Assembly: GCF_014218725.1 (NCBI RefSeq)
Contig: NZ_JABBJE010000005.1
Span: 1 to 64,000 of the forward strand
DNA length: 64,000 bases
DNA from: Brevundimonas huaxiensis
Lineage (GTDB): Bacteria > Pseudomonadota > Alphaproteobacteria > Caulobacterales > Caulobacteraceae
Direction of reading: 5' to 3'
Part shown: one piece after another, positions 24,365 through 32,073 of the stretch
How positions within the stretch are numbered: the first letter of the stretch is position 1
How the letters are laid out: each line of letters opens with the position of its first letter
Program-made: the position numbers and the translations under genes
The notes under the pieces: model-generated
Databases searched by the model: none
What the model saw: only the letters and a program-made list of their open reading frames with translations
What the model was told of the DNA's origin: nothing

Positions 24365-25561
24365 CTAAATCAACTCCACGCCCATCGCAGTGGCTTCGCC
24401 GCCGCCGATGCACAGGGCGGCCATGCCGCGGGTTTTGCCGTGGGCTTTCAGGGCGGACAGGAGGGTGGTCAGGACGCGGGCGCCGGAAGCCCCAAGCGGG
24501 TGGCCCAGGGCGCAGGCGCCGCCGTTGACGTTGATCTTGTCGTGGGGGATGCCGAGTTCCTGCATGGCGATCATCGGCACGATGGCGAAGGCCTCGTTGA
24601 CCTCCCACAGATCGACGTCGTCGGCGCTCCAGCCGGCCTTCTTCAGCGCCTTTTGCAGGGCGAAGACCGGGGCGGTGGTGAACAGGTGCGGTTCGTGGGC
24701 GTGGGCGGCCTGGCTGACCACGCGGGCGACCGGCGTCAGGCCCAAGGCCTGGGCCGTCGATTGGCGCATCATGACCAGAGCGGCGGCGCCGTCCGAAATC
24801 GAGGCGGCGGAGGCCGCGGTGATCGTGCCGTCCTTGCCGAAGGCGGGCTTCAGATTGGGGATCTTGGACGGGTCGGACCGGGTCGGCTGTTCGTCGCGGT
24901 CGACGGTGACGGGGCCTTTGCGGGTCTTGACCTCGACCGAGGCGATCTCGGCGTCGAAGGCGCCTGTCTCCTGGGCGCGCTTGGCCCGGCCCGCGCTCTC
25001 GATGGCGTAGGCGTCCTGCTGCTCGCGGGTGAACTGATAGGCCTTGGCCGTGTCCTCGGCGAACTGCCCCATCAGCTTGCCGGGGGTGTAGGCGTCCTCC
25101 AGCCCGTCCAGATACATGCTGTCGGAAATGACGTCGTGACCGATGCGTGCGCCGCCCCGGTGCTTTTGCATCAGATACGGGGCGTTGGTCATGGACTCCA
25201 TGCCGCCCGCCACGATCACATCGACCGAACCGGCGGCCAGGGCATCGTGCGCCATCATGGCCGCCTGCATGCCCGAACCGCACATCTTGTTGATGGTGGT
25301 CGCCTCGGTGGAGGTGGGCAGGCCCGCGCCCATGCCCGCCTGACGCGCCGGCGCCTGGCCCAGGCCCGCAGGCAGGACGCAGCCCATGATGATCTGCTCG
25401 ACCTTTTGCGGATCGAGACCCGCGCGGTCCAGGGCCGCCTTCACCGCGACGGCGCCCAGGTCGGTGGACTTGGCGTCGGACAGCGCGCCCTGGAAACCGC
25501 CCATCGGGGTGCGGGCGTAGGAGACGATGACGACGGGATCGGCGGATGGGGTCGCGGACAT
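24365..25561 (-). CDS. Acetyl-CoA C-acetyltransferase (thiolase)
   Basis: A 398-residue thiolase that condenses two acetyl-CoA molecules or cleaves beta-ketoacyl-CoA. The nucleophilic Cys94 is in INKMCGSGMQ, His354 in GHPLGASGA and the second catalytic cysteine, Cys384, in LCIGGGEATA. ATG 25561 has AGAGGAA upstream; the frame runs further 5' but without family similarity. No beta-ketothiolase partners such as phaB or fadB are adjacent, so the choice between PHB synthesis, amino-acid catabolism and fatty-acid degradation is open. The flavin-reductase fusion lies 47 bp upstream on the same strand. Confidence 0.94.
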   Translation of the reverse strand: MSATPSADPVVIVSYARTPMGGFQGALSDAKSTDLGAVAVKAALDRAGLDPQKVEQIIMGCVLPAGLGQAPARQAGMGAGLPTSTEATTINKMCGSGMQAAMMAHDALAAGSVDVIVAGGMESMTNAPYLMQKHRGGARIGHDVISDSMYLDGLEDAYTPGKLMGQFAEDTAKAYQFTREQQDAYAIESAGRAKRAQETGAFDAEIASVEVKTRKGPVTVDRDEQPTRSDPSKIPNLKPAFGKDGTITAASAASISDGAAALVMMRQSTAQALGLTPVARVVSQAAHAHEPHLFTTAPVFALQKALKKAGWSADDVDLWEVNEAFAIVPMIAMQELGIPHDKINVNGGACALGHPLGASGARVLTTLLSALKAHGKTRGMAALCIGGGEATAMGVELI

Positions 25562-25608: not shown

Positions 25609-26580
25609 TCAGGAAAAGTGCAGCCGCCGATACTTGCCCCGGAAATAGAGCAGCGGATCGCGGCGCGGCTCGAACCGGGCGCGCCTGACACGACCGATGA
25701 TGACCAGATGATCGCCGGCCTCGACGATCTGTTCGGTTCCGCATTCGAAACTGGCCAGGGCGCCCGACAGGATGGGCGCGCCGGTGTCCCACGTCTCCCA
25801 CGCCACGTCCTGGAACCGGTCGGCGTGAGACCGGGCGAAGACGCCGGAGGTCGGCTGCTGGCCGATATGCAGGACGTTGATGGCGAAATGTTCGGCCTGG
25901 CGAAAACGGTCGACGTTGGTGGACGAACGGGCCAGGCAGAACAGGATCAGCGGCGGATCCAGCGACACCGAGGAGAAGGAGTTGGCGGTCAGGCCGACGG
26001 GCTGCCCGGCCTCGTCAAGGGTCGTGACCACCGTGACCCCGGTGGCGAAACAGCCCAGGGCGTCGCGCAGGGTGCGGGGGTCAGAGCCGGCCTGATAATA
26101 CAGGGCGGCGCGCGGGGCGTGGCGTTCAAGGAAGCCCAGAAGAGCGGCGTTCTCGGCCTCGACCGCGTCCGGCGCTTCGGCGCGCGCGATCGTCTGGATC
26201 GGGACGCCGGCCAGCTGCGCCTCAGGCTCGGGCGAGACGGCCCCCTGCCCTTCGGCGACGACCACCAGACAGCTAGCCAGGGCCGGGCCGGTGACGGAAA
26301 GCGCAGGGATGACGGCCGGCAGCGTCGTTTCGGAACAGACGATGGCCGGGCGAGAGGCAAGCTCGGTCAGCAGTTTGCGCAAGGCGGCCGAGCCGTCGTC
26401 CGCCGCGTCGAAGTCGGCGCTCAGAATGACGTGGCGGCCGGCCTCGACAAGCGCGCGCACCGACCGGCGCCAGTCTCCGGACAGACGCTCGGGCGCGCCG
26501 ATCAGCAGGACGACGGGATCCTCGGGGTCGCCCCAGTTTTCGACGTCCAGGCCTCCATTCGGGGGCGGCGATGCGGTCAT
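25609..26580 (-). CDS. Flavin reductase-domain protein with an N-terminal alpha/beta-hydrolase-like extension
   Basis: 323 residues. The C-terminal half, from about 165 (RDALGCFATGVTVVTTLD, GLTANSFSSVSLDPPLILFCL, FAINVLHIGQQ), is an FMN-binding flavin reductase domain of the type that supplies reduced flavin to two-component monooxygenases. The N-terminal half (VVLLIGAPERLSGDWRRSVRALVEAGRHVI...) resembles the first part of an alpha/beta hydrolase, but has no visible GxSxG nucleophile, so it is probably non-catalytic. Standard stand-alone reductases are about 170 residues. No monooxygenase component is adjacent; the thiolase follows 47 bp downstream. Confidence 0.8.
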   Translation of the reverse strand: MTASPPPNGGLDVENWGDPEDPVVLLIGAPERLSGDWRRSVRALVEAGRHVILSADFDAADDGSAALRKLLTELASRPAIVCSETTLPAVIPALSVTGPALASCLVVVAEGQGAVSPEPEAQLAGVPIQTIARAEAPDAVEAENAALLGFLERHAPRAALYYQAGSDPRTLRDALGCFATGVTVVTTLDEAGQPVGLTANSFSSVSLDPPLILFCLARSSTNVDRFRQAEHFAINVLHIGQQPTSGVFARSHADRFQDVAWETWDTGAPILSGALASFECGTEQIVEAGDHLVIIGRVRRARFEPRRDPLLYFRGKYRRLHFS

Positions 26581-26660
26581 GAGGCGGGGCGGTCCGGTCT
26601 GTCGTGAAGCGTGAGGCGATCCCTATTAGGGGAAGACCGGCGCCCGGCGCCAGAACTGTA

Positions 26661-27287
26661 TCAGCCGCCGTAGCCCCGGCCGCCGCCGCCGAAGCCGCCG
26701 CGCGAGACGACGGTGGTTCGGCTCTGCACCCGCGTCGGGGCCTGACGGGCGACGTCGCCGTGCTCGCGCGCATTGGTCAGGGTCTTGCCGGTGCGATAGT
26801 CGCGGTAGGCGTAGCCGCCGCCGTAGCCGTTCGACAGCCGTCCCTCGCGGTCGCGATACAGCGGTCCGCCGCCACGATAGCCGCCGCCGTTCAGCAGCTG
26901 GCCGACGATGAAGCCGGTCAGCAGCGGGCTGAAGAAGGAGCCGCCGTTGTTGTTCGGCTGGCACTGCGACGGTCCCCACTGGCCCTCGCACTCCTCGCGG
27001 GTGGCGTAGCGCGGCGCGGTCTTGGCGGCCTCTTGCTGAGCCTTGGCCAGGGCCGCGTCGCACTCGTTGTCGGGAATGTCGTTGGCGGCCTTGCACTCGT
27101 CCAGCGACTGATAGGCCAGGGTCGGTTCGGGCTCGGGCGCCGGGACGCGCTGGGGCGAGCCGCAGGCGGCCAGCGAGAAGCTGGCGGTCGCCATCAGGCT
27201 GCTGACGTGCAGGACGCGCGAGCGCTTCAGCCGGCGCATGGTGTCTGTCTTGGCCAGGTTCTGGGGCAGGTCTTTGGGGTCGGTCAT
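26661..27287 (-). CDS. DUF1190 (YgiB/YjfM-like) lipoprotein
   Basis: 208 residues. From Met17 the chain has a lipoprotein signal with lipobox SLAAC (Cys42). The conserved DUF1190 block follows: SLDECKAANDIPDNECDAALAKAQQEAAKTAP, then YATREECEGQWGPSQCQ with paired cysteines. Gly-rich stretches and a C-terminal RTTVVSRGGFGGGGRGYGG match the YgiB ending. In E. coli the homologues ygiB and yjfM sit beside the ATP-grasp genes ygiC and yjfC. Here it is the last gene of the minus-strand arm DUF2491-DUF350-DUF1190, starting 4 bp after the DUF350 stop. Molecular function is unknown. Met17 may be the true start. Confidence 0.85.
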   Translation of the reverse strand: MTDPKDLPQNLAKTDTMRRLKRSRVLHVSSLMATASFSLAACGSPQRVPAPEPEPTLAYQSLDECKAANDIPDNECDAALAKAQQEAAKTAPRYATREECEGQWGPSQCQPNNNGGSFFSPLLTGFIVGQLLNGGGYRGGGPLYRDREGRLSNGYGGGYAYRDYRTGKTLTNAREHGDVARQAPTRVQSRTTVVSRGGFGGGGRGYGG

Positions 27288-27291
27288 GGGT

Positions 27292-27705
27292 TCACGACGT
27301 CATGCAGGCGGCGTTGAGCAGGCCGACGCAGATGGAGATGGAGGCCAGATAGACGGCCGCGGCGATCTCGCCCGCCTCGATGCGGACGACCAGGTTACGG
27401 AAGGCCGTGCGGCTGATGGTGACGAAGACGACGATCTGGATCACGCCGGCCAGCAGCGCCCAGGCCGCGAACTCCATCAGACTGACGGTGTGCGACAGGG
27501 CCGAAGCCAGAGGCAGGACATAGCCGATCAGGGCGCCCCCGAGCGCGATGGCGGCGGCCGTGTTGCCTTCCCGGATCAGCGTATGTTCGTGATACGGGGT
27601 GACCCATTGATAGATCAGCTTGAAGGCCAGGGTGAAGGCGCCCGCCATGGCGAAGGCGATCAGGAAGGCGATCGCCCCCTGCTGAAAAATGAACCAGTCG
27701 AACAT
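27292..27705 (-). CDS. DUF350 (YjfL-like) inner-membrane protein
   Basis: 137 residues with four membrane helices. The DUF350 features are visible: AFTLAFKLIYQWVTPYHEHTLIREGNTAAAIALGGALIGYVLPL, then a helix pair ending in ISICVGLLNAACMTS. DUF350 proteins are typically encoded with glutathionylspermidine-synthase-like ATP-grasp and PspA genes and are thought to form a small membrane component of that system. It lies 24 bp after the DUF2491 gene and 4 bp before DUF1190, so it is surely cotranscribed with them. Confidence 0.9.
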   Translation of the reverse strand: MFDWFIFQQGAIAFLIAFAMAGAFTLAFKLIYQWVTPYHEHTLIREGNTAAAIALGGALIGYVLPLASALSHTVSLMEFAAWALLAGVIQIVVFVTISRTAFRNLVVRIEAGEIAAAVYLASISICVGLLNAACMTS

Positions 27706-27729
27706 CGGTCTTGCCCCCTCGGATTGCGC

Positions 27730-28377
27730 TCAGGCGCGGAACTCGGCCATTTCCAGTGGAATGCCGATCATGATTTCGTGCGTCGTGTCGCCGCCCTCGG
27801 GCTGCTGCTCAAGCGCCAGCATCAGCTCGCGCCCGCCACCCAACTCGCGCGCATACAACATGCAGGTCTGGAAGATTTTCGCATAGGGCGTGGTCGCGGC
27901 GCGGTCGTCCCAGATCGTCTCCCACAGGGTGACGGGCGGCTGGATGGCGTCGCTCTCGGCGAACCAGAAGCGGGGATAGTCGGGCAGTTCTTCGGCCGCG
28001 CCGTGAAAGACCGGCGCCGACAGGCGGTCGCGCCAGATGCGGCGTTCGCGCTCGCCCGGCGGATAGGCCGAGGTCCAGGGCACAAACAGGCTGAAGTCGT
28101 AGGATTCCAGGCCCGCCTCATCATCGCTCATGGCCTGAAGCATCACGTGGTCGTCGGTGTAGAAGCGATGGACGAACTGGCCGCTGTCCAGGCTGACCAA
28201 CCCCTGCGCCGATATGTCCAGCACGTCGCGATCCAGGGTGAACTGCGTCTCGTCGCCCAGCCGGCGCCAGGCCAGCGGGTCCAGCGACACGGTGCGGCCC
28301 ACGGTGATGTTGCGCACCGTCGCCAACCGATTGGCAGGCGCGGCCTTCTCCGACGATCCGAAAAGCTTCTTGAACAT
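27730..28377 (-). CDS. DUF2491 (YjfK-like) cytosolic protein
   Basis: 215 residues, starting MFKKLFGSSEKAAP and matching the YjfK pattern: RNITVGRTVSLDPLAWRRLG, then a central Asp/Trp-rich region (SYDFSLFVPWTSAYPPGERERRIW) and a C-terminal EIMIGIPLEMAEF. It is soluble with no catalytic motif I can identify. It heads the minus-strand arm of the yjf-like locus and is transcribed divergently from the DUF2170 gene across 138 bp. No clear Shine-Dalgarno precedes its ATG. Confidence 0.82.
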   Translation of the reverse strand: MFKKLFGSSEKAAPANRLATVRNITVGRTVSLDPLAWRRLGDETQFTLDRDVLDISAQGLVSLDSGQFVHRFYTDDHVMLQAMSDDEAGLESYDFSLFVPWTSAYPPGERERRIWRDRLSAPVFHGAAEELPDYPRFWFAESDAIQPPVTLWETIWDDRAATTPYAKIFQTCMLYARELGGGRELMLALEQQPEGGDTTHEIMIGIPLEMAEFRA

Positions 28378-28485
28378 GGGCGACTATCTAGGCCCGATGC
28401 GCGCCGACGGCGAGCGAACAGAAGCGATGCGACCGAATGAGGCGGTTCATGGCGCGACATTCCGTCCGATCTTGCGTCAAGTCAA

Positions 28486-28512
28486 GCGTTCATGTTACGC
28501 GTTTCATGTAAC
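28486..28512. promoter_or_regulatory. Imperfect tandem repeat in the divergent yjf-like promoter
   Basis: GCGTTCATGTTAC (28486-28498) is followed directly by GCGTTTCATGTAAC (28499-28512). The pair ends 3 bp before ATG 28516 of the DUF2170 gene, which has no Shine-Dalgarno. It may be a two-site operator or part of the promoter of a leaderless transcript. Function is inferred. Confidence 0.4.
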
Positions 28513-28515
28513 GAT

Positions 28516-29196
28516 ATGCCGAACGACGCATCGCCCTCTTCCACCGCTAACGACCGCATCCGTGCGTGGCGACAGGCGCGTCGTGAGGCCGGTCTGGTCA
28601 AGCTGGAGCTTTGGGTGCCGGCCGCAGCCCGCGACGACGTCAAGGCGGCCGTTCGCGCCATCGTCACCGATTCAACACGCGGGCCGCAGCTTGCCCCACG
28701 CCCGCGCCGCCCCACTTCCGATTCCATCACCCCTGGAGACGACCATCAAATGGACGCCGTGATCGAGACCCCCTGGACCGTGCCCGCCATCAAGGCGGCG
28801 CTGGACGAATCCACTTTGCTGCGTGACGGCGAAATGACCCTGCGCGTGGTCGAGGGCGCCGAGCCGGTGCTGCTGGCGACCATGCACGAATACGGCGACC
28901 TGCCGGTCTATCTGAGCGTCGGCGGGGCGCAGATCGTCTGTTCGGTCCTGCTGTGGCCCGTCGCCGAGCAAAAGGATCGCCACGCCTTCAACGAGTTCCT
29001 GCTGAAGGCCCAGCGCGTGGTGCCCCTGTCCAACTTCGCCATCACCAATGTCGGTGGCGAAGACGTGTATGAGTTGATGGGCGAACTCTCTTGCAAGACG
29101 ACGCTGCAGACCATCCTGATCGAACTGCGCACCCTGGCCGAGAATGCGATCGACGCCACCGAACTGCGTGAAACCTTCGGCGCCGACGCCGCCTGA
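28516..29196 (+). CDS. DUF2170 (YjfI-like) protein
   Basis: About 226 residues from ATG 28516; an ATG at 28492 lies inside the tandem repeat and is less likely. The N-terminal 55 residues (NDRIRAWRQARREAGLVKLELWVPAAARDDVKAAVRAIV) look like a ribbon-helix-helix-type or CopG-like segment. The DUF2170 domain follows (about 75-226: TLRDGEMTLRVVEGAEPVLLATMHEYGDLPVYLSVGGAQIVCSVLLWPV). E. coli YjfI has the same DUF2170. The N-terminal extension could make it the locus regulator, which is inference. It is the first gene of the plus-strand arm; pspA follows after 16 bp. Confidence 0.82.
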   Translation: MPNDASPSSTANDRIRAWRQARREAGLVKLELWVPAAARDDVKAAVRAIVTDSTRGPQLAPRPRRPTSDSITPGDDHQMDAVIETPWTVPAIKAALDESTLLRDGEMTLRVVEGAEPVLLATMHEYGDLPVYLSVGGAQIVCSVLLWPVAEQKDRHAFNEFLLKAQRVVPLSNFAITNVGGEDVYELMGELSCKTTLQTILIELRTLAENAIDATELRETFGADAA

Positions 29197-29212
29197 TCCC
29201 GGAAGACCGACC

Positions 29213-29953
29213 ATGTCCATGCTCAGAAAACTGTCCGCCCTGTTCCGCGGCACGGCCCACGATGCGGCCCAGGGCGTCGTCGACGCCAATGCGCTGAAGA
29301 TCCTCGACCAGGAAATCCGCGACGCCGACAACGCCCAAGGCAAGGCCCGCGATGACCTGGCCGGCCTGGTGGCGCGCCGCCGCATGGCCGAAAACGAACT
29401 TGCATCGTTCAGGGACCAGATCGCCAAATACGAAAGCTCGGCCCGCACCGCCCTGGGTCAGGGCAAGACCGATCTGGCGCGCGAGGTCGCCGGCCGCATC
29501 GCCGAGCTGGAGGTCGAGATCACCAGCCGCGGCCCGCTGATCGAGGACATGAAGACGGCCGAGACGCGCCTGCGCGCGGCCATCGCCTCGACCGATCAGA
29601 AGATCGAGACGCTTCGTCGCGAGATCGACATCGTCAAGGTCAACGATTCCGTCCAGAAGGCCCAGACGTCGGTCGCCCTGAACTCGGCCGGCGCCCAGTC
29701 GCGCATCGGCTCGGCGGCGGACAGCCTGCAACGCATCAAGCAGCGCCAGGCGATCCAGGAAGAGAAGCTGAACGCCAGCCAGGCGCTGGAGGACCGCCGC
29801 ACCGGCGCGGACCTGGACGCCAAGCTGCGCGAGGCCGGCATCCTGCCCGGTCACTCCTCGGCCGACGACGTCCTGGCCCGCCTGAGCCAGCCGGAGGTGA
29901 CGGTGGTCACGCCGCGCATCGGGCAGTCCACGCCTGACAAGGACCCGGCCTGA
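29213..29953 (+). CDS. PspA/IM30 family protein (YjfJ-like), ESCRT-III-like membrane remodeller
   Basis: 246 residues from ATG 29213, nearly all long alpha-helical coiled coil (MLRKLSALFRG..., LVARRRMAENELASFRDQIAKYESSARTALGQGK, AQSRIGSAADSLQRIKQRQAI). This is the PspA/Vipp1 pattern of ESCRT-III-like proteins that polymerise on the inner membrane and protect it under envelope stress. No pspBC or pspF homologue is adjacent; the protein is embedded instead in the yjf-type locus, as YjfJ in E. coli. A longer upstream frame overlapping DUF2170 is not a credible start. It is followed 3 bp later by the ATP-grasp gene. Confidence 0.92.
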   Translation: MSMLRKLSALFRGTAHDAAQGVVDANALKILDQEIRDADNAQGKARDDLAGLVARRRMAENELASFRDQIAKYESSARTALGQGKTDLAREVAGRIAELEVEITSRGPLIEDMKTAETRLRAAIASTDQKIETLRREIDIVKVNDSVQKAQTSVALNSAGAQSRIGSAADSLQRIKQRQAIQEEKLNASQALEDRRTGADLDAKLREAGILPGHSSADDVLARLSQPEVTVVTPRIGQSTPDKDPA

Positions 29954-29956
29954 TCC

Positions 29957-31123
29957 ATGGAGCGTCTGCGCCTCGATCCCCGCACCGACTGGGACGCCAA
30001 GGCCGAGGAACTTGGCTTCACCTGGCGCCACACCGACGGCAAACCCTATTGGGACGAGACGGCGGCCTATGCCTTTTCGCTGGCCGAGATCGAGGACGGG
30101 ATCGAGGCGCCGACCGAGGAACTGCACGGCCTGTGCCTGGAGCTTGTGAACGAGGCCGTTCAGTCCGAGCGGCTGATGGAACAGCTCGATATTCCCGAGA
30201 CCATGCGGGACTATGTGGCCGACAGCTGGAAGCGGGGCGATCCGTCGCTGTATGGCCGGTTCGACTTCGCCTATGACGGGACGGGGCCGGCGAAACTGTA
30301 CGAATACAACGCCGACACCCCGACCAGCATTTATGAGACGGCGGTGTTCCAGTGGCTGTGGCTGGAGGACCAGATCAAGGCCGGCGCCCTGCCCGCCGAT
30401 GCGGATCAGTTCAACAGCCTGCATGAGAAGCTGGTCGATCGGTTCCGCGCCATCTTTCCGAACGGCGGCTTCGTGCATTTCACCTCGGACGCCGATTTCG
30501 TCGAGGACCGCCAGACGGTGCGCTTCCTGGAAGACCTGGCCCAGCAGGCCGGACTGGAGCCTCAGTTCGTCGCTATCGACCAGATCGGGCTGAACGCCGA
30601 CGGCCGGTTCGTCGATCACGAGAACTGGATCATCCAGGCGATGTTCAAGCTCTACCCGTGGGAGCAGATGCTGCGCGACGACTACGCCGCGCCGCTGCCG
30701 ACGGCGGACGTGACCGTGCTGGAACCGGCGTGGAAGAGCATCCTGTCCAACAAGGCCATCCTGCCGCTGTTGTGGGAGCGGCATGCGGGCCACCCCAATC
30801 TGCTGGAAAGCTATTTCGAGGGCGATCCGGCCGAGGCGGCGCTGGGCTCATCCTATGTGCGCAAGCCGTTGTTCTCGCGCGAAGGCGACAATGTCGAACT
30901 GATCGACCAGGGCGTAAGCGCCGCAGAGGTGGTGGACGGCGGCTATGGCGCAGGGCGTCACGTCCGGCAGGCGCTGTGCGATCCGCCCCTGTTCGACGGC
31001 AACCATGTGATCGTCGGGTCTTGGGTGGTGGGAACGGAACCAGCGGGCATCAGCCTGCGGGAGGATACGGGCCGCATCACCCGGAACACCTCGCGCTTCG
31101 TGCCGCACTTCATCCGCGACTGA
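29957..31123 (+). CDS. Glutathionylspermidine synthase-like ATP-grasp amidoligase (YjfC/YgiC family)
   Basis: 388 residues of the C-terminal amidoligase domain of glutathionylspermidine synthase, without the amidase half. Conserved segments are KLYEYNADTPTSIYETAVFQWLW (substrate/ATP region, about 112-134) and SSYVRKPLFSREGDNVELID (ATP-grasp phosphate-binding, about 295-314), and the chain ends NTSRFVPHFI. Family members form an amide bond between a peptide carboxylate and an amine using ATP; E. coli YgiC and YjfC lack proven GSP synthase activity, so the true substrate may be a peptide, protein tail or amine other than spermidine. Last gene of the tight DUF2170-pspA-ATP-grasp arm. Confidence 0.9.
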   Translation: MERLRLDPRTDWDAKAEELGFTWRHTDGKPYWDETAAYAFSLAEIEDGIEAPTEELHGLCLELVNEAVQSERLMEQLDIPETMRDYVADSWKRGDPSLYGRFDFAYDGTGPAKLYEYNADTPTSIYETAVFQWLWLEDQIKAGALPADADQFNSLHEKLVDRFRAIFPNGGFVHFTSDADFVEDRQTVRFLEDLAQQAGLEPQFVAIDQIGLNADGRFVDHENWIIQAMFKLYPWEQMLRDDYAAPLPTADVTVLEPAWKSILSNKAILPLLWERHAGHPNLLESYFEGDPAEAALGSSYVRKPLFSREGDNVELIDQGVSAAEVVDGGYGAGRHVRQALCDPPLFDGNHVIVGSWVVGTEPAGISLREDTGRITRNTSRFVPHFIRD

Positions 31124-31194
31124 GGCCCAGGCAGGCAACCAAGCCGGACGACCGCCGTTTTGTCGGCTGACATCAACCGACAAGAAGCCTTCCC

Positions 31195-32073
31195 ATGCGC
31201 AACGCCCGCCTCGCCCTGATCGCCACCACCGCCCTGACCCTCGCGGGCGGCGCGGCCGTCGCCCAGACGCAATATCCTTCGACGACCCAGGATCGGCTGG
31301 GTGCGGTCGTGGGCGCCCTGTTCGGCGACCGGCTAGGGCTGTCGGCCATGGATCAGGCCTGGCTGCGCGGCGGCCGTCCGCTGCGTGACGGCCAGAGCCA
31401 GTTCTCGACCCGCGTGGACGCCAGCGTGCGCGCCGGAAGCGTCTCCGCCTCGGCCGCGACGCGCCTGCGCGCCGACTATTCGGCCCTGGTCGATCTGGAG
31501 AACCAATACGCCGTCGGCGGCATCTCGGCCCAGGAACGCGCCGATCTGAACGCTCGCTACACCGCCCTGACCCAGACGCTGGAAGCCGGCGCCTCGGGCT
31601 ATGCCGACATGGACACCGTGGCCCAGGGCCGTGCGGACTTCGAGACCCGCGTCAACGCCGCCGTGACGGCGCGCCGCATCACCCGCACCGAGGCGACACG
31701 CCTGAAAACGGACTATCAGGCCCTGATCCAGCTGGAGAGCCGATACAGCGCCGACGGATCCATCAGCGCCAGCGAGCGCGCGGATCTGGACGCGCGTCTG
31801 GACGCCCTGGACCTGCGGGTCGGCGACGGCCCGGCCGGACAGACGCCGTCGGCCAACCTGCCCGCCCGCACGCGTCTGGCGAACCTGGAAACCGCCCTGA
31901 TCGCCGCCGAGCGCTCGGGCGCCGTCAGCCGCACCGAGGCCGCCGACATTCGCGTCGAGGCCGGCGATCTCGCCCGCCTGGATGCCGCCTACAGCCGCAC
32001 CAGCCCCTCGTCCGACGACACGGCCTATCTGAGCCGCCGCATCAGCGAACTGGAACTGCGCGTCCGTCGCTAG
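31195..32073 (+). CDS. Exported helical-repeat protein
   Basis: 292 residues with a signal peptide cleaved after AAVAQ. The body contains three related units of about 75 residues, each with the pattern F-x-T/N-R-V-x-A-x-V-x-x-G/R-x-I/V-T/S-x-x-E/A-A-x-x-L/I-R/K-x-D-Y-x-A-L-x-x-L-E. They start near residues 69, 149 and 223, and each ends in a second helix (SAQERADLNARYTAL; SASERADLDARLDAL; DDTAYLSRRISEL). I know no name for it; such repeats suggest a periplasmic helical scaffold. It lies 71 bp after the ATP-grasp gene and may or may not belong to that transcript. The A/T-poor hairpin at 32085-32112 follows its stop. Confidence 0.75.
   Translation: MRNARLALIATTALTLAGGAAVAQTQYPSTTQDRLGAVVGALFGDRLGLSAMDQAWLRGGRPLRDGQSQFSTRVDASVRAGSVSASAATRLRADYSALVDLENQYAVGGISAQERADLNARYTALTQTLEAGASGYADMDTVAQGRADFETRVNAAVTARRITRTEATRLKTDYQALIQLESRYSADGSISASERADLDARLDALDLRVGDGPAGQTPSANLPARTRLANLETALIAAERSGAVSRTEAADIRVEAGDLARLDAAYSRTSPSSDDTAYLSRRISELELRVRR

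What the first reader, a model, noticed from the sequence alone, without database searches (positions are those of the whole stretch)
26661..31123. Split, divergent ATP-grasp/PspA/DUF350 locus (yjf/ygi-like system)
All six parts of the E. coli yjfIJKLMC set are here (DUF2170, PspA, DUF2491, DUF350, DUF1190 lipoprotein, glutathionylspermidine-synthase-like ATP-grasp), but reorganised as two divergent operons from one 138-bp promoter: membrane/lipoprotein arm on one side, PspA/amidoligase arm on the other. The pathway in any organism is unresolved. It suggests a peptide- or amine-ligating system coupled to inner-membrane repair, and the divergent layout gives a clean system to study.
Basis: partly seen in the sequence, partly recalled or inferred. 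Interest (0 to 1): 0.7.

Follow-up and report, generated by a model that had tools for sequence, protein, structure and literature searches.

The report
Divergent Psp-type membrane stress gene cluster
The six genes form a real, already known kind of bacterial membrane-stress cluster that pairs a membrane-mending protein with an enzyme of a family that joins peptides to polyamines; its split layout is normal for this bacterial family, and repeats at the promoter together with an extra protein segment suggest, without proving it, how the cluster regulates itself.

Summary
In detail: six families, all above Pfam cut-offs, in two head-to-head arms 138 bp apart. The set is known: the third CesT/Tir-PspA group of Ravi et al. 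2024, with the six families of E. coli yjfIJKLMC. The split is this family's normal form: all 60 other sampled Caulobacteraceae loci with DUF2491 have the same genes, order and directions. "Unresolved in any organism" is out of date: E. coli YjfC and YgiC are reported as peptide-spermidine ligases, and this ligase is 48-49% identical to them. New here: (1) a K+-channel-like gene lies between the arms in 8 of the 60, and 17 of 18 distant ligase-bearing sets have one, but none was found in the window's genome; (2) the DUF2170 protein carries an N-terminal, weakly MazE-like segment, shared with Pseudomonas-type BacA but outside its solved structure, whose presence tracks half-site repeats at the promoter (family 32 of 42 against 0 of 20, resting on two tree events; distant set 3 of 5 against 0 of 37). 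I propose an autoregulator that reads PspA. Binding is inferred, not shown.

The parts
26661..27287 (-). DUF1190 putative lipoprotein (YjfM/YgiB family)
   Evidence: Pfam PF06693 125.7 bits; lipobox LAAC at residue 39
27292..27705 (-). DUF350 membrane protein (YjfL family)
   Evidence: Pfam PF03994 124 bits; four hydrophobic segments
27730..28377 (-). DUF2491 protein (YjfK family)
   Evidence: Pfam PF10679 180.4 bits
28378..28515 (.). 138-bp divergent intergenic region; the place where 8 of 60 relatives hold a K+-channel-like gene
28481..28513 (+). Operator-like repeats GTCAAGCG / TTCATGTTACGCG / TTTCATGTAACG, ending 2 bp before the DUF2170 start codon
   Evidence: sequence; the 23-bp core 28491-28513 occurs once in the genome at up to 3 mismatches, reversed-pattern control 0
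28516..28740 (+). N-terminal segment of the DUF2170 protein, weakly MazE-like, putative DNA-binding
   Evidence: PF11455 E 0.0085, 16.5 bits against a cut-off of 22, in the window; 12 of 30 members match at E up to 1, best 1.4e-5; aligns to the N-terminal part of NCBIfam BacA from its position 11
28516..29196 (+). DUF2170 protein (YjfI/BacA relative) with CesT-like C-terminal domain
   Evidence: Pfam PF09938 161.1 bits; model matches BacA 8q8o, E 2.4e-11
29213..29953 (+). PspA (YjfJ/BacB relative), the only PspA found in this genome
   Evidence: Pfam PF04012 160 bits; one match in the genome
29957..31123 (+). ATP-grasp ligase of the YjfC/YgiC type (GSP_synth)
   Evidence: Pfam PF03738 491.8 bits; 7uk6 398.6 bits; motifs shared with E. 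coli Gss

Best explanation
This is a yjf-type PspA stress cluster (the third CesT/Tir-PspA group of Ravi et al.) in the split form usual for Caulobacteraceae. Proposed working: the DUF2170 protein represses its own divergent promoter through its N-terminal segment, which binds the repeats at its start codon. Its CesT-like domain binds PspA. When PspA is drawn to a damaged inner membrane the balance of that pair shifts and both arms are expressed. PspA then mends the membrane. The ligase joins spermidine to a peptide, and the membrane arm (DUF350, the lipoprotein DUF1190, DUF2491, and in some relatives a channel with a ligand-sensing-type domain) acts on or responds to that conjugate. Shown by sequence: parts, layout, kinship, conserved ligase motifs, repeats and their co-occurrence with the segment. 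Reported elsewhere for homologues: ligase activity, and raised partner proteins in a bacA mutant. Inferred: DNA binding, switching by PspA, the conjugate's role.
For: Six families in place. Set and layout kept in 60 of 60 relatives. The ligase is 48% identical to YjfC, 49% to YgiC and 29% to Gss, with R101, D103, E116, N118, K266, K303 and R308 invariant among the four (their roles are recalled from the Gss literature, not tested). A possible spermidine route: a CANSDC-like gene and, beside it, a gene with the C-terminal domain of saccharopine-dehydrogenase-like enzymes, as in CASDH (a recalled label), on C2. The segment tracks the repeats: CATGTWA within 60 bp upstream of the start in 32 of 42 loci with the segment against 0 of 20 without (shuffles of the first group 3.9%); in a mostly separate distant set ACATGTAA occurs in 3 of 5 against 0 of 37. 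The operator core is unique in the genome. Nine of the 37 distant loci without the segment carry a head-to-head gene similar to DUF6471. In P. aeruginosa the bacA mutant has 6.1 to 13.5-fold more of the other five Bac proteins, read by its authors as negative control (PMC10948618). A BacA-BacB contact is predicted at 0.981 (PMC13092808) and mentioned as unpublished data.
Against: The segment's family match is below cut-off, its AlphaFold model has pTM 0.38 and Foldseek found no match. On the tree the segment changes state only twice, so the family counts are not independent, and the motif was read from those same loci. Ten of 42 loci with the segment lack the exact half-site: eight Phenylobacterium-type ones, where I see a variant repeat by eye, and L052 and L059; two of five distant ones, L201 and L228, also lack it. 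The bacA data come from a different kind of cluster: in L199, whose DUF2170 protein passes NCBI's BacA cut-off, only DUF2170 and PspA of the six families were found in the 14-kb stretch. 36 of 61 cluster-bearing genomes have neither a strong CANSDC nor an AdoMetDC match, and the window's CANSDC match (388.5 bits) is itself below the family cut-off of 409. 20 of the 60 relatives and E. coli YjfI lack the segment.
Confidence: 0.5

Rival explanations
1. The repeats belong to another regulator (a response regulator or an extracytoplasmic sigma factor) or are core promoter elements; the N-terminal segment does something else, such as dimerisation or PspA binding.
For: Tandem repeats over a start codon suit other factors too; the segment has no confident DNA-binding fold.
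Against: The half-site is missing from 20 of 20 family loci and, in its strict form, 37 of 37 distant loci that lack the segment (relaxed form 36 of 37); the core occurs once in the genome, unlike a widely shared regulon site.
Confidence: 0.3
2. The DUF2170 protein is only a chaperone for PspA, and the raised Bac proteins in the bacA mutant are indirect or an effect of the transposon on downstream genes.
For: The solved BacA structure is a CesT-like domain alone (8q8o); the mutant is a transposon insertion; E. coli YjfI and 20 of 60 relatives lack the segment.
Against: NCBI's BacA model has 206 positions and L199 matches 1-205 of it, segment included; co-occurrence with repeats.
Confidence: 0.2
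3. The ligase uses another amine, such as homospermidine or putrescine, and the cluster's product is not a peptide-spermidine conjugate.
For: 36 of 61 cluster-bearing genomes lack both strong CANSDC and AdoMetDC matches; homospermidine synthesis was not searched.
Against: The window's own genome has the CANSDC-like and CASDH-like pair, and cluster and CANSDC go together in the genus (12 of 17 against 3 of 23), though kinship is not corrected for.
Confidence: 0.3

Closest known systems
E. coli yjfIJKLMC
   Same: The same six families; ligase 48% identical to YjfC
   Different: One row of genes; YjfI lacks the N-terminal segment
Third CesT/Tir-PspA group of Ravi et al. 2024 (PMC11237479, section 19 read)
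   Same: DUF2170-type/PspA dyad, ATP-grasp ligase, DUF350, DUF1190, DUF2491
   Different: That description includes a K+ channel, not found in this genome; the section read mentions no divergent layout, N-terminal segment or repeats for this group
P. aeruginosa bac cluster (PMC10948618)
   Same: DUF2170-PspA dyad; BacA-type N-terminal segment in L199
   Different: Six-gene operon with a proposed sigma-54 site; no such site here. In the BacA-type locus L199 none of the other four families was found near the dyad
E. coli ygiBC
   Same: DUF1190 plus YgiC ligase
   Different: No PspA, DUF2170, DUF2491 or DUF350 in the annotated stretch
E. coli Gss, glutathionylspermidine synthetase/amidase
   Same: ATP-grasp synthetase motifs
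   Different: 29% identity; no amidase part here; the S-A-S after NAD in Gss reads T-P-T here and in YjfC and YgiC

Membership tests
Third CesT/Tir-PspA group (yjf-type Psp system) | DUF2170 next to PspA | tested here: met
Third CesT/Tir-PspA group (yjf-type Psp system) | ATP-grasp ligase, DUF350, DUF1190 and DUF2491 in the neighbourhood | tested here: met
Third CesT/Tir-PspA group (yjf-type Psp system) | K+ channel with ligand-sensing domain (listed by Ravi et al.) | tested here: not met
   not between the arms, and no match in the genome to the channel of L021 (without a positive control); present in 8 of 60 relatives. I do not treat it as obligatory, since E. coli yjf lacks it too
YjfC/YgiC peptide-spermidine ligases | Full-length similarity and ATP-grasp motifs | tested here: met
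YjfC/YgiC peptide-spermidine ligases | Peptide-spermidine ligation | not testable with these tools
   needs an assay
MazE-like family (PF11455) | Score above the Pfam cut-off | tested here: not met
   16.5 bits against 22 in the window; best of 30 members E 1.4e-5
Pseudomonas BacA (NF050185) | Score above the NCBIfam cut-off | tested here: not met
   151.9 bits against 300: a relative of BacA, not an equivalog
Sigma-54 psp-type promoter | -24/-12 site upstream of the operon | tested here: not met
   no strict site in 61 related loci (the loose GG-N10-GC pattern occurs 0-7 times per locus and says nothing); no match with up to 2 mismatches in the window's intergenic region

The most novel reading that the evidence does not exclude
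DUF2170/BacA proteins with the N-terminal segment are one-component PspA sensors: the segment binds ACATGTAA-type repeats at the cluster's own start codon, and a T3SS-chaperone-like domain reads free PspA, so membrane damage is turned directly into transcription without PspF or sigma-54. In Pseudomonas-type BacA the DNA-binding part lies upstream of an internal start and is outside the solved structure.
Probability: 0.35. Interest if true: 0.65.

Novelty: new variant of a known kind. Interest (0 to 1): 0.45.

Why it matters
How PspA systems other than the classical psp operon are switched is, as far as I know (recalled), mostly unknown. If the DUF2170 protein is both PspA partner and repressor, the switch is one protein, and the divergent layout lets both arms be read from one short piece of DNA. 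This genome has one PspA, one DUF2491 and one ligase of this family, so deletions of these should not be masked by copies; DUF350 has a second copy, and copies of DUF1190 and DUF2170 were not searched for. The optional channel hints that ion balance is part of the response.

Tried and rejected
Sigma-54 regulation as proposed for P. aeruginosa bac: no site. Sigma-70 scan of 26500-31300: nothing. A canonical ribbon-helix-helix: my first guess, not supported; the model shows two helices with an extended stretch between and nothing in the PDB matched by fold, while the best sequence match was a chance-level glutathione transferase. AdoMet-decarboxylase spermidine route: no match in this genome and in only 3 of 199 of the family. 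Two forms of the DUF2170 protein from an internal start: strong Shine-Dalgarno only in L199 and L200, 8 of 46 rows with a match of at least 4 bases, and my script did not pick the conserved internal ATG in every row; left open. Alignment A1 mixed orientations and is unusable. Plasmids: 107 records with a match, none covering 80% of the query in one place. One search classed L106 as lacking the segment; after reading its protein I moved it, and one search uses that. One search's pair score of at least 15 held in 26 of 40 with the segment against 0 of 21. I judged the segment in the other distant loci by eye. L106 is in both the family and the distant test; the distant 37 include E. coli. The shuffles are approximate dinucleotide shuffles with a plain shuffle as fall-back. 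One search measures upstream of the domain start, moved 180 bases for loci with the segment.
Full report
What is there. The window lies in a Caulobacteraceae genome close to Brevundimonas vesicularis: the nearest named DUF2170 loci are Brevundimonas, 98% identical over the protein (best 80 of 162 loci shown, all analysed only as a listing). Six ORFs at the stated places match DUF1190, DUF350, DUF2491, DUF2170, PspA and GSP_synth, all above Pfam's cut-offs. Two arms of three genes point away from each other across 138 bp. E. coli K-12 has the same six families in one row.

How common is the layout. DUF2491 was found in 61 of 199 sampled genomes of the family, in 4 of 22 genera, and all 61 also have a PF03738 ligase. 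I took the neighbourhood of all 60 others. All 60 hold the six genes in the same order and directions. In 8 of them a gene lies between the arms, on the strand of the DUF2491 arm, with an ion-channel domain (46.1 bits, cut-off 22.5) and a TrkA-N domain just below its cut-off (22.3 against 23.8, the copy of L021). Channel-bearing sisters (L019, L021, L023, L026) match the window on both sides of that place, while about 98 bp of the window's intergenic DNA (28381-28478) have no match there, so the stretch is exchanged and not simply lost. Channel presence changes 9 times on the tree. The window's genome gave no match to the channel (the tool warns that an empty answer without a positive control shows little).

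Outside and beside the set. In the class 12 of 385 genomes match DUF2491, two of them Brevundimonas. Of the other ten, L106 has the full divergent set with a channel and L115 shows DUF2491, DUF350 and DUF1190 at a contig end; the eight weak matches (L107-L114) showed no DUF2170, PspA or ligase in the stretches taken. In the family 36 genomes have a ligase without DUF2491; of the 20 I fetched, two have DUF1190 and DUF350 divergent from the ligase, one DUF1190 divergent from it, and the rest the ligase alone or with DUF1190 or DUF350 upstream of it.

Wider survey. In the phylum DUF2170 was found in 50 of 398 genomes, 44 of them outside the family; I took 40 of these neighbourhoods. Eighteen hold the ligase, and 17 of these a channel, L238 being the exception. 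Fourteen of the 18 have the genes in one row. In L228, of the class, they are divergent as in the window, with a channel; in L202, L203 and L220, also of the class, they are divergent with the ligase on the membrane arm.

The ligase and its amine. It is 48-49% identical to YjfC and YgiC and shares motifs with Gss; residue roles are recalled. The genome has a CANSDC-like gene (388.5 bits, below the curated cut-off of 409; none of the 199 genomes passes it) beside a PF16653 gene that I take for CASDH, and no AdoMet decarboxylase match. In the genus 12 of 17 cluster-bearing genomes have a strong CANSDC match against 3 of 23 others; in the family 25 of 61 against 26 of 138 (not corrected for kinship). 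The remaining 36 of 61 have neither route as searched.

The regulator idea. The DUF2170 protein of the window has about 70 residues in front of the DUF2170 domain. They resemble the MazE-like family weakly. Forty of the 60 relatives have them, and so does L106. They also occur in L199, whose protein passes NCBI's BacA cut-off (356.9 bits against 300) and matches the model from position 1, while the solved BacA chain is 146 residues long and aligns from the DUF2170 domain on. Just upstream of the start codon, loci with the segment have repeats. The half-site CATGTWA occurs within 60 bp in 32 of 42 of them (window and L106 included) and in 0 of 20 loci without the segment; approximate shuffles of the first group give 3.9%. 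The motif was read from these same loci, so I tested it on the distant set: ACATGTAA lies upstream in 3 of 5 loci with the segment and 0 of 37 without (p 0.0009; relaxed pattern 3 of 5 against 1 of 37, p 0.003; L106 is in both sets). On the family tree the segment changes state twice, so the family count rests on few events. Nine of the 37 carry a head-to-head gene similar to the DUF6471 fragment of L205; no locus with the segment does.

Reading. The P. aeruginosa bacA mutant contains 6.1 to 13.5-fold more of the other five Bac proteins (PMC10948618), and a BacA-BacB contact is predicted (PMC13092808). I join these to the repeats: the DUF2170 protein represses its promoter and is released through PspA. 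The joining is my inference, and it crosses from one kind of cluster to another, since near the BacA-type gene of L199 only PspA of the other five families was found. PMC10948618 calls BacA a possible regulator; a search of its text for 'ribbon-helix' and 'DNA-binding' gave no occurrence, and the passages of PMC13092808 that I saw mention no DNA-binding part. Three searches of the held library listed no paper on such a segment by title or abstract; most subscription papers are not held.

Verdict. A real, well-conserved cluster of a known kind; the divergent split is the family's normal form. The testable addition is the link between the promoter repeats and the DUF2170 protein.

Noticed in passing
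G000 C4:230102-230482 (L002): A second DUF350 gene, after an ORF that looks like a radical-SAM RlmN and before one that looks like a trypsin-like protease, both by eye.
   Followed up: no
window 24826-24910: ARAGORN calls a tRNA-Pro inside the thiolase gene, on the opposite strand; probably a false positive.
   Followed up: no
L083, L085, L086: Reduced relatives of the cluster: DUF1190-DUF350 (L085, L086) or DUF1190 alone (L083) divergent from the ligase, without PspA, DUF2170 and DUF2491 in the stretch.
   Followed up: partly
L032: The N-terminal segment and the DUF2170 domain fall in two ORFs of the same frame, parted by a single stop codon.
   Followed up: no
L205, L207, L208, L209, L213, L219, L221, L231, L235: A gene similar to DUF6471 head-to-head with a DUF2170 gene that lacks the N-terminal segment, perhaps a stand-in regulator.
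   Followed up: partly
window 31195-32073: Uncharacterised ORF after the ligase, matched in 5 of 55 relatives searched (L020-L023, L026).
   Followed up: no
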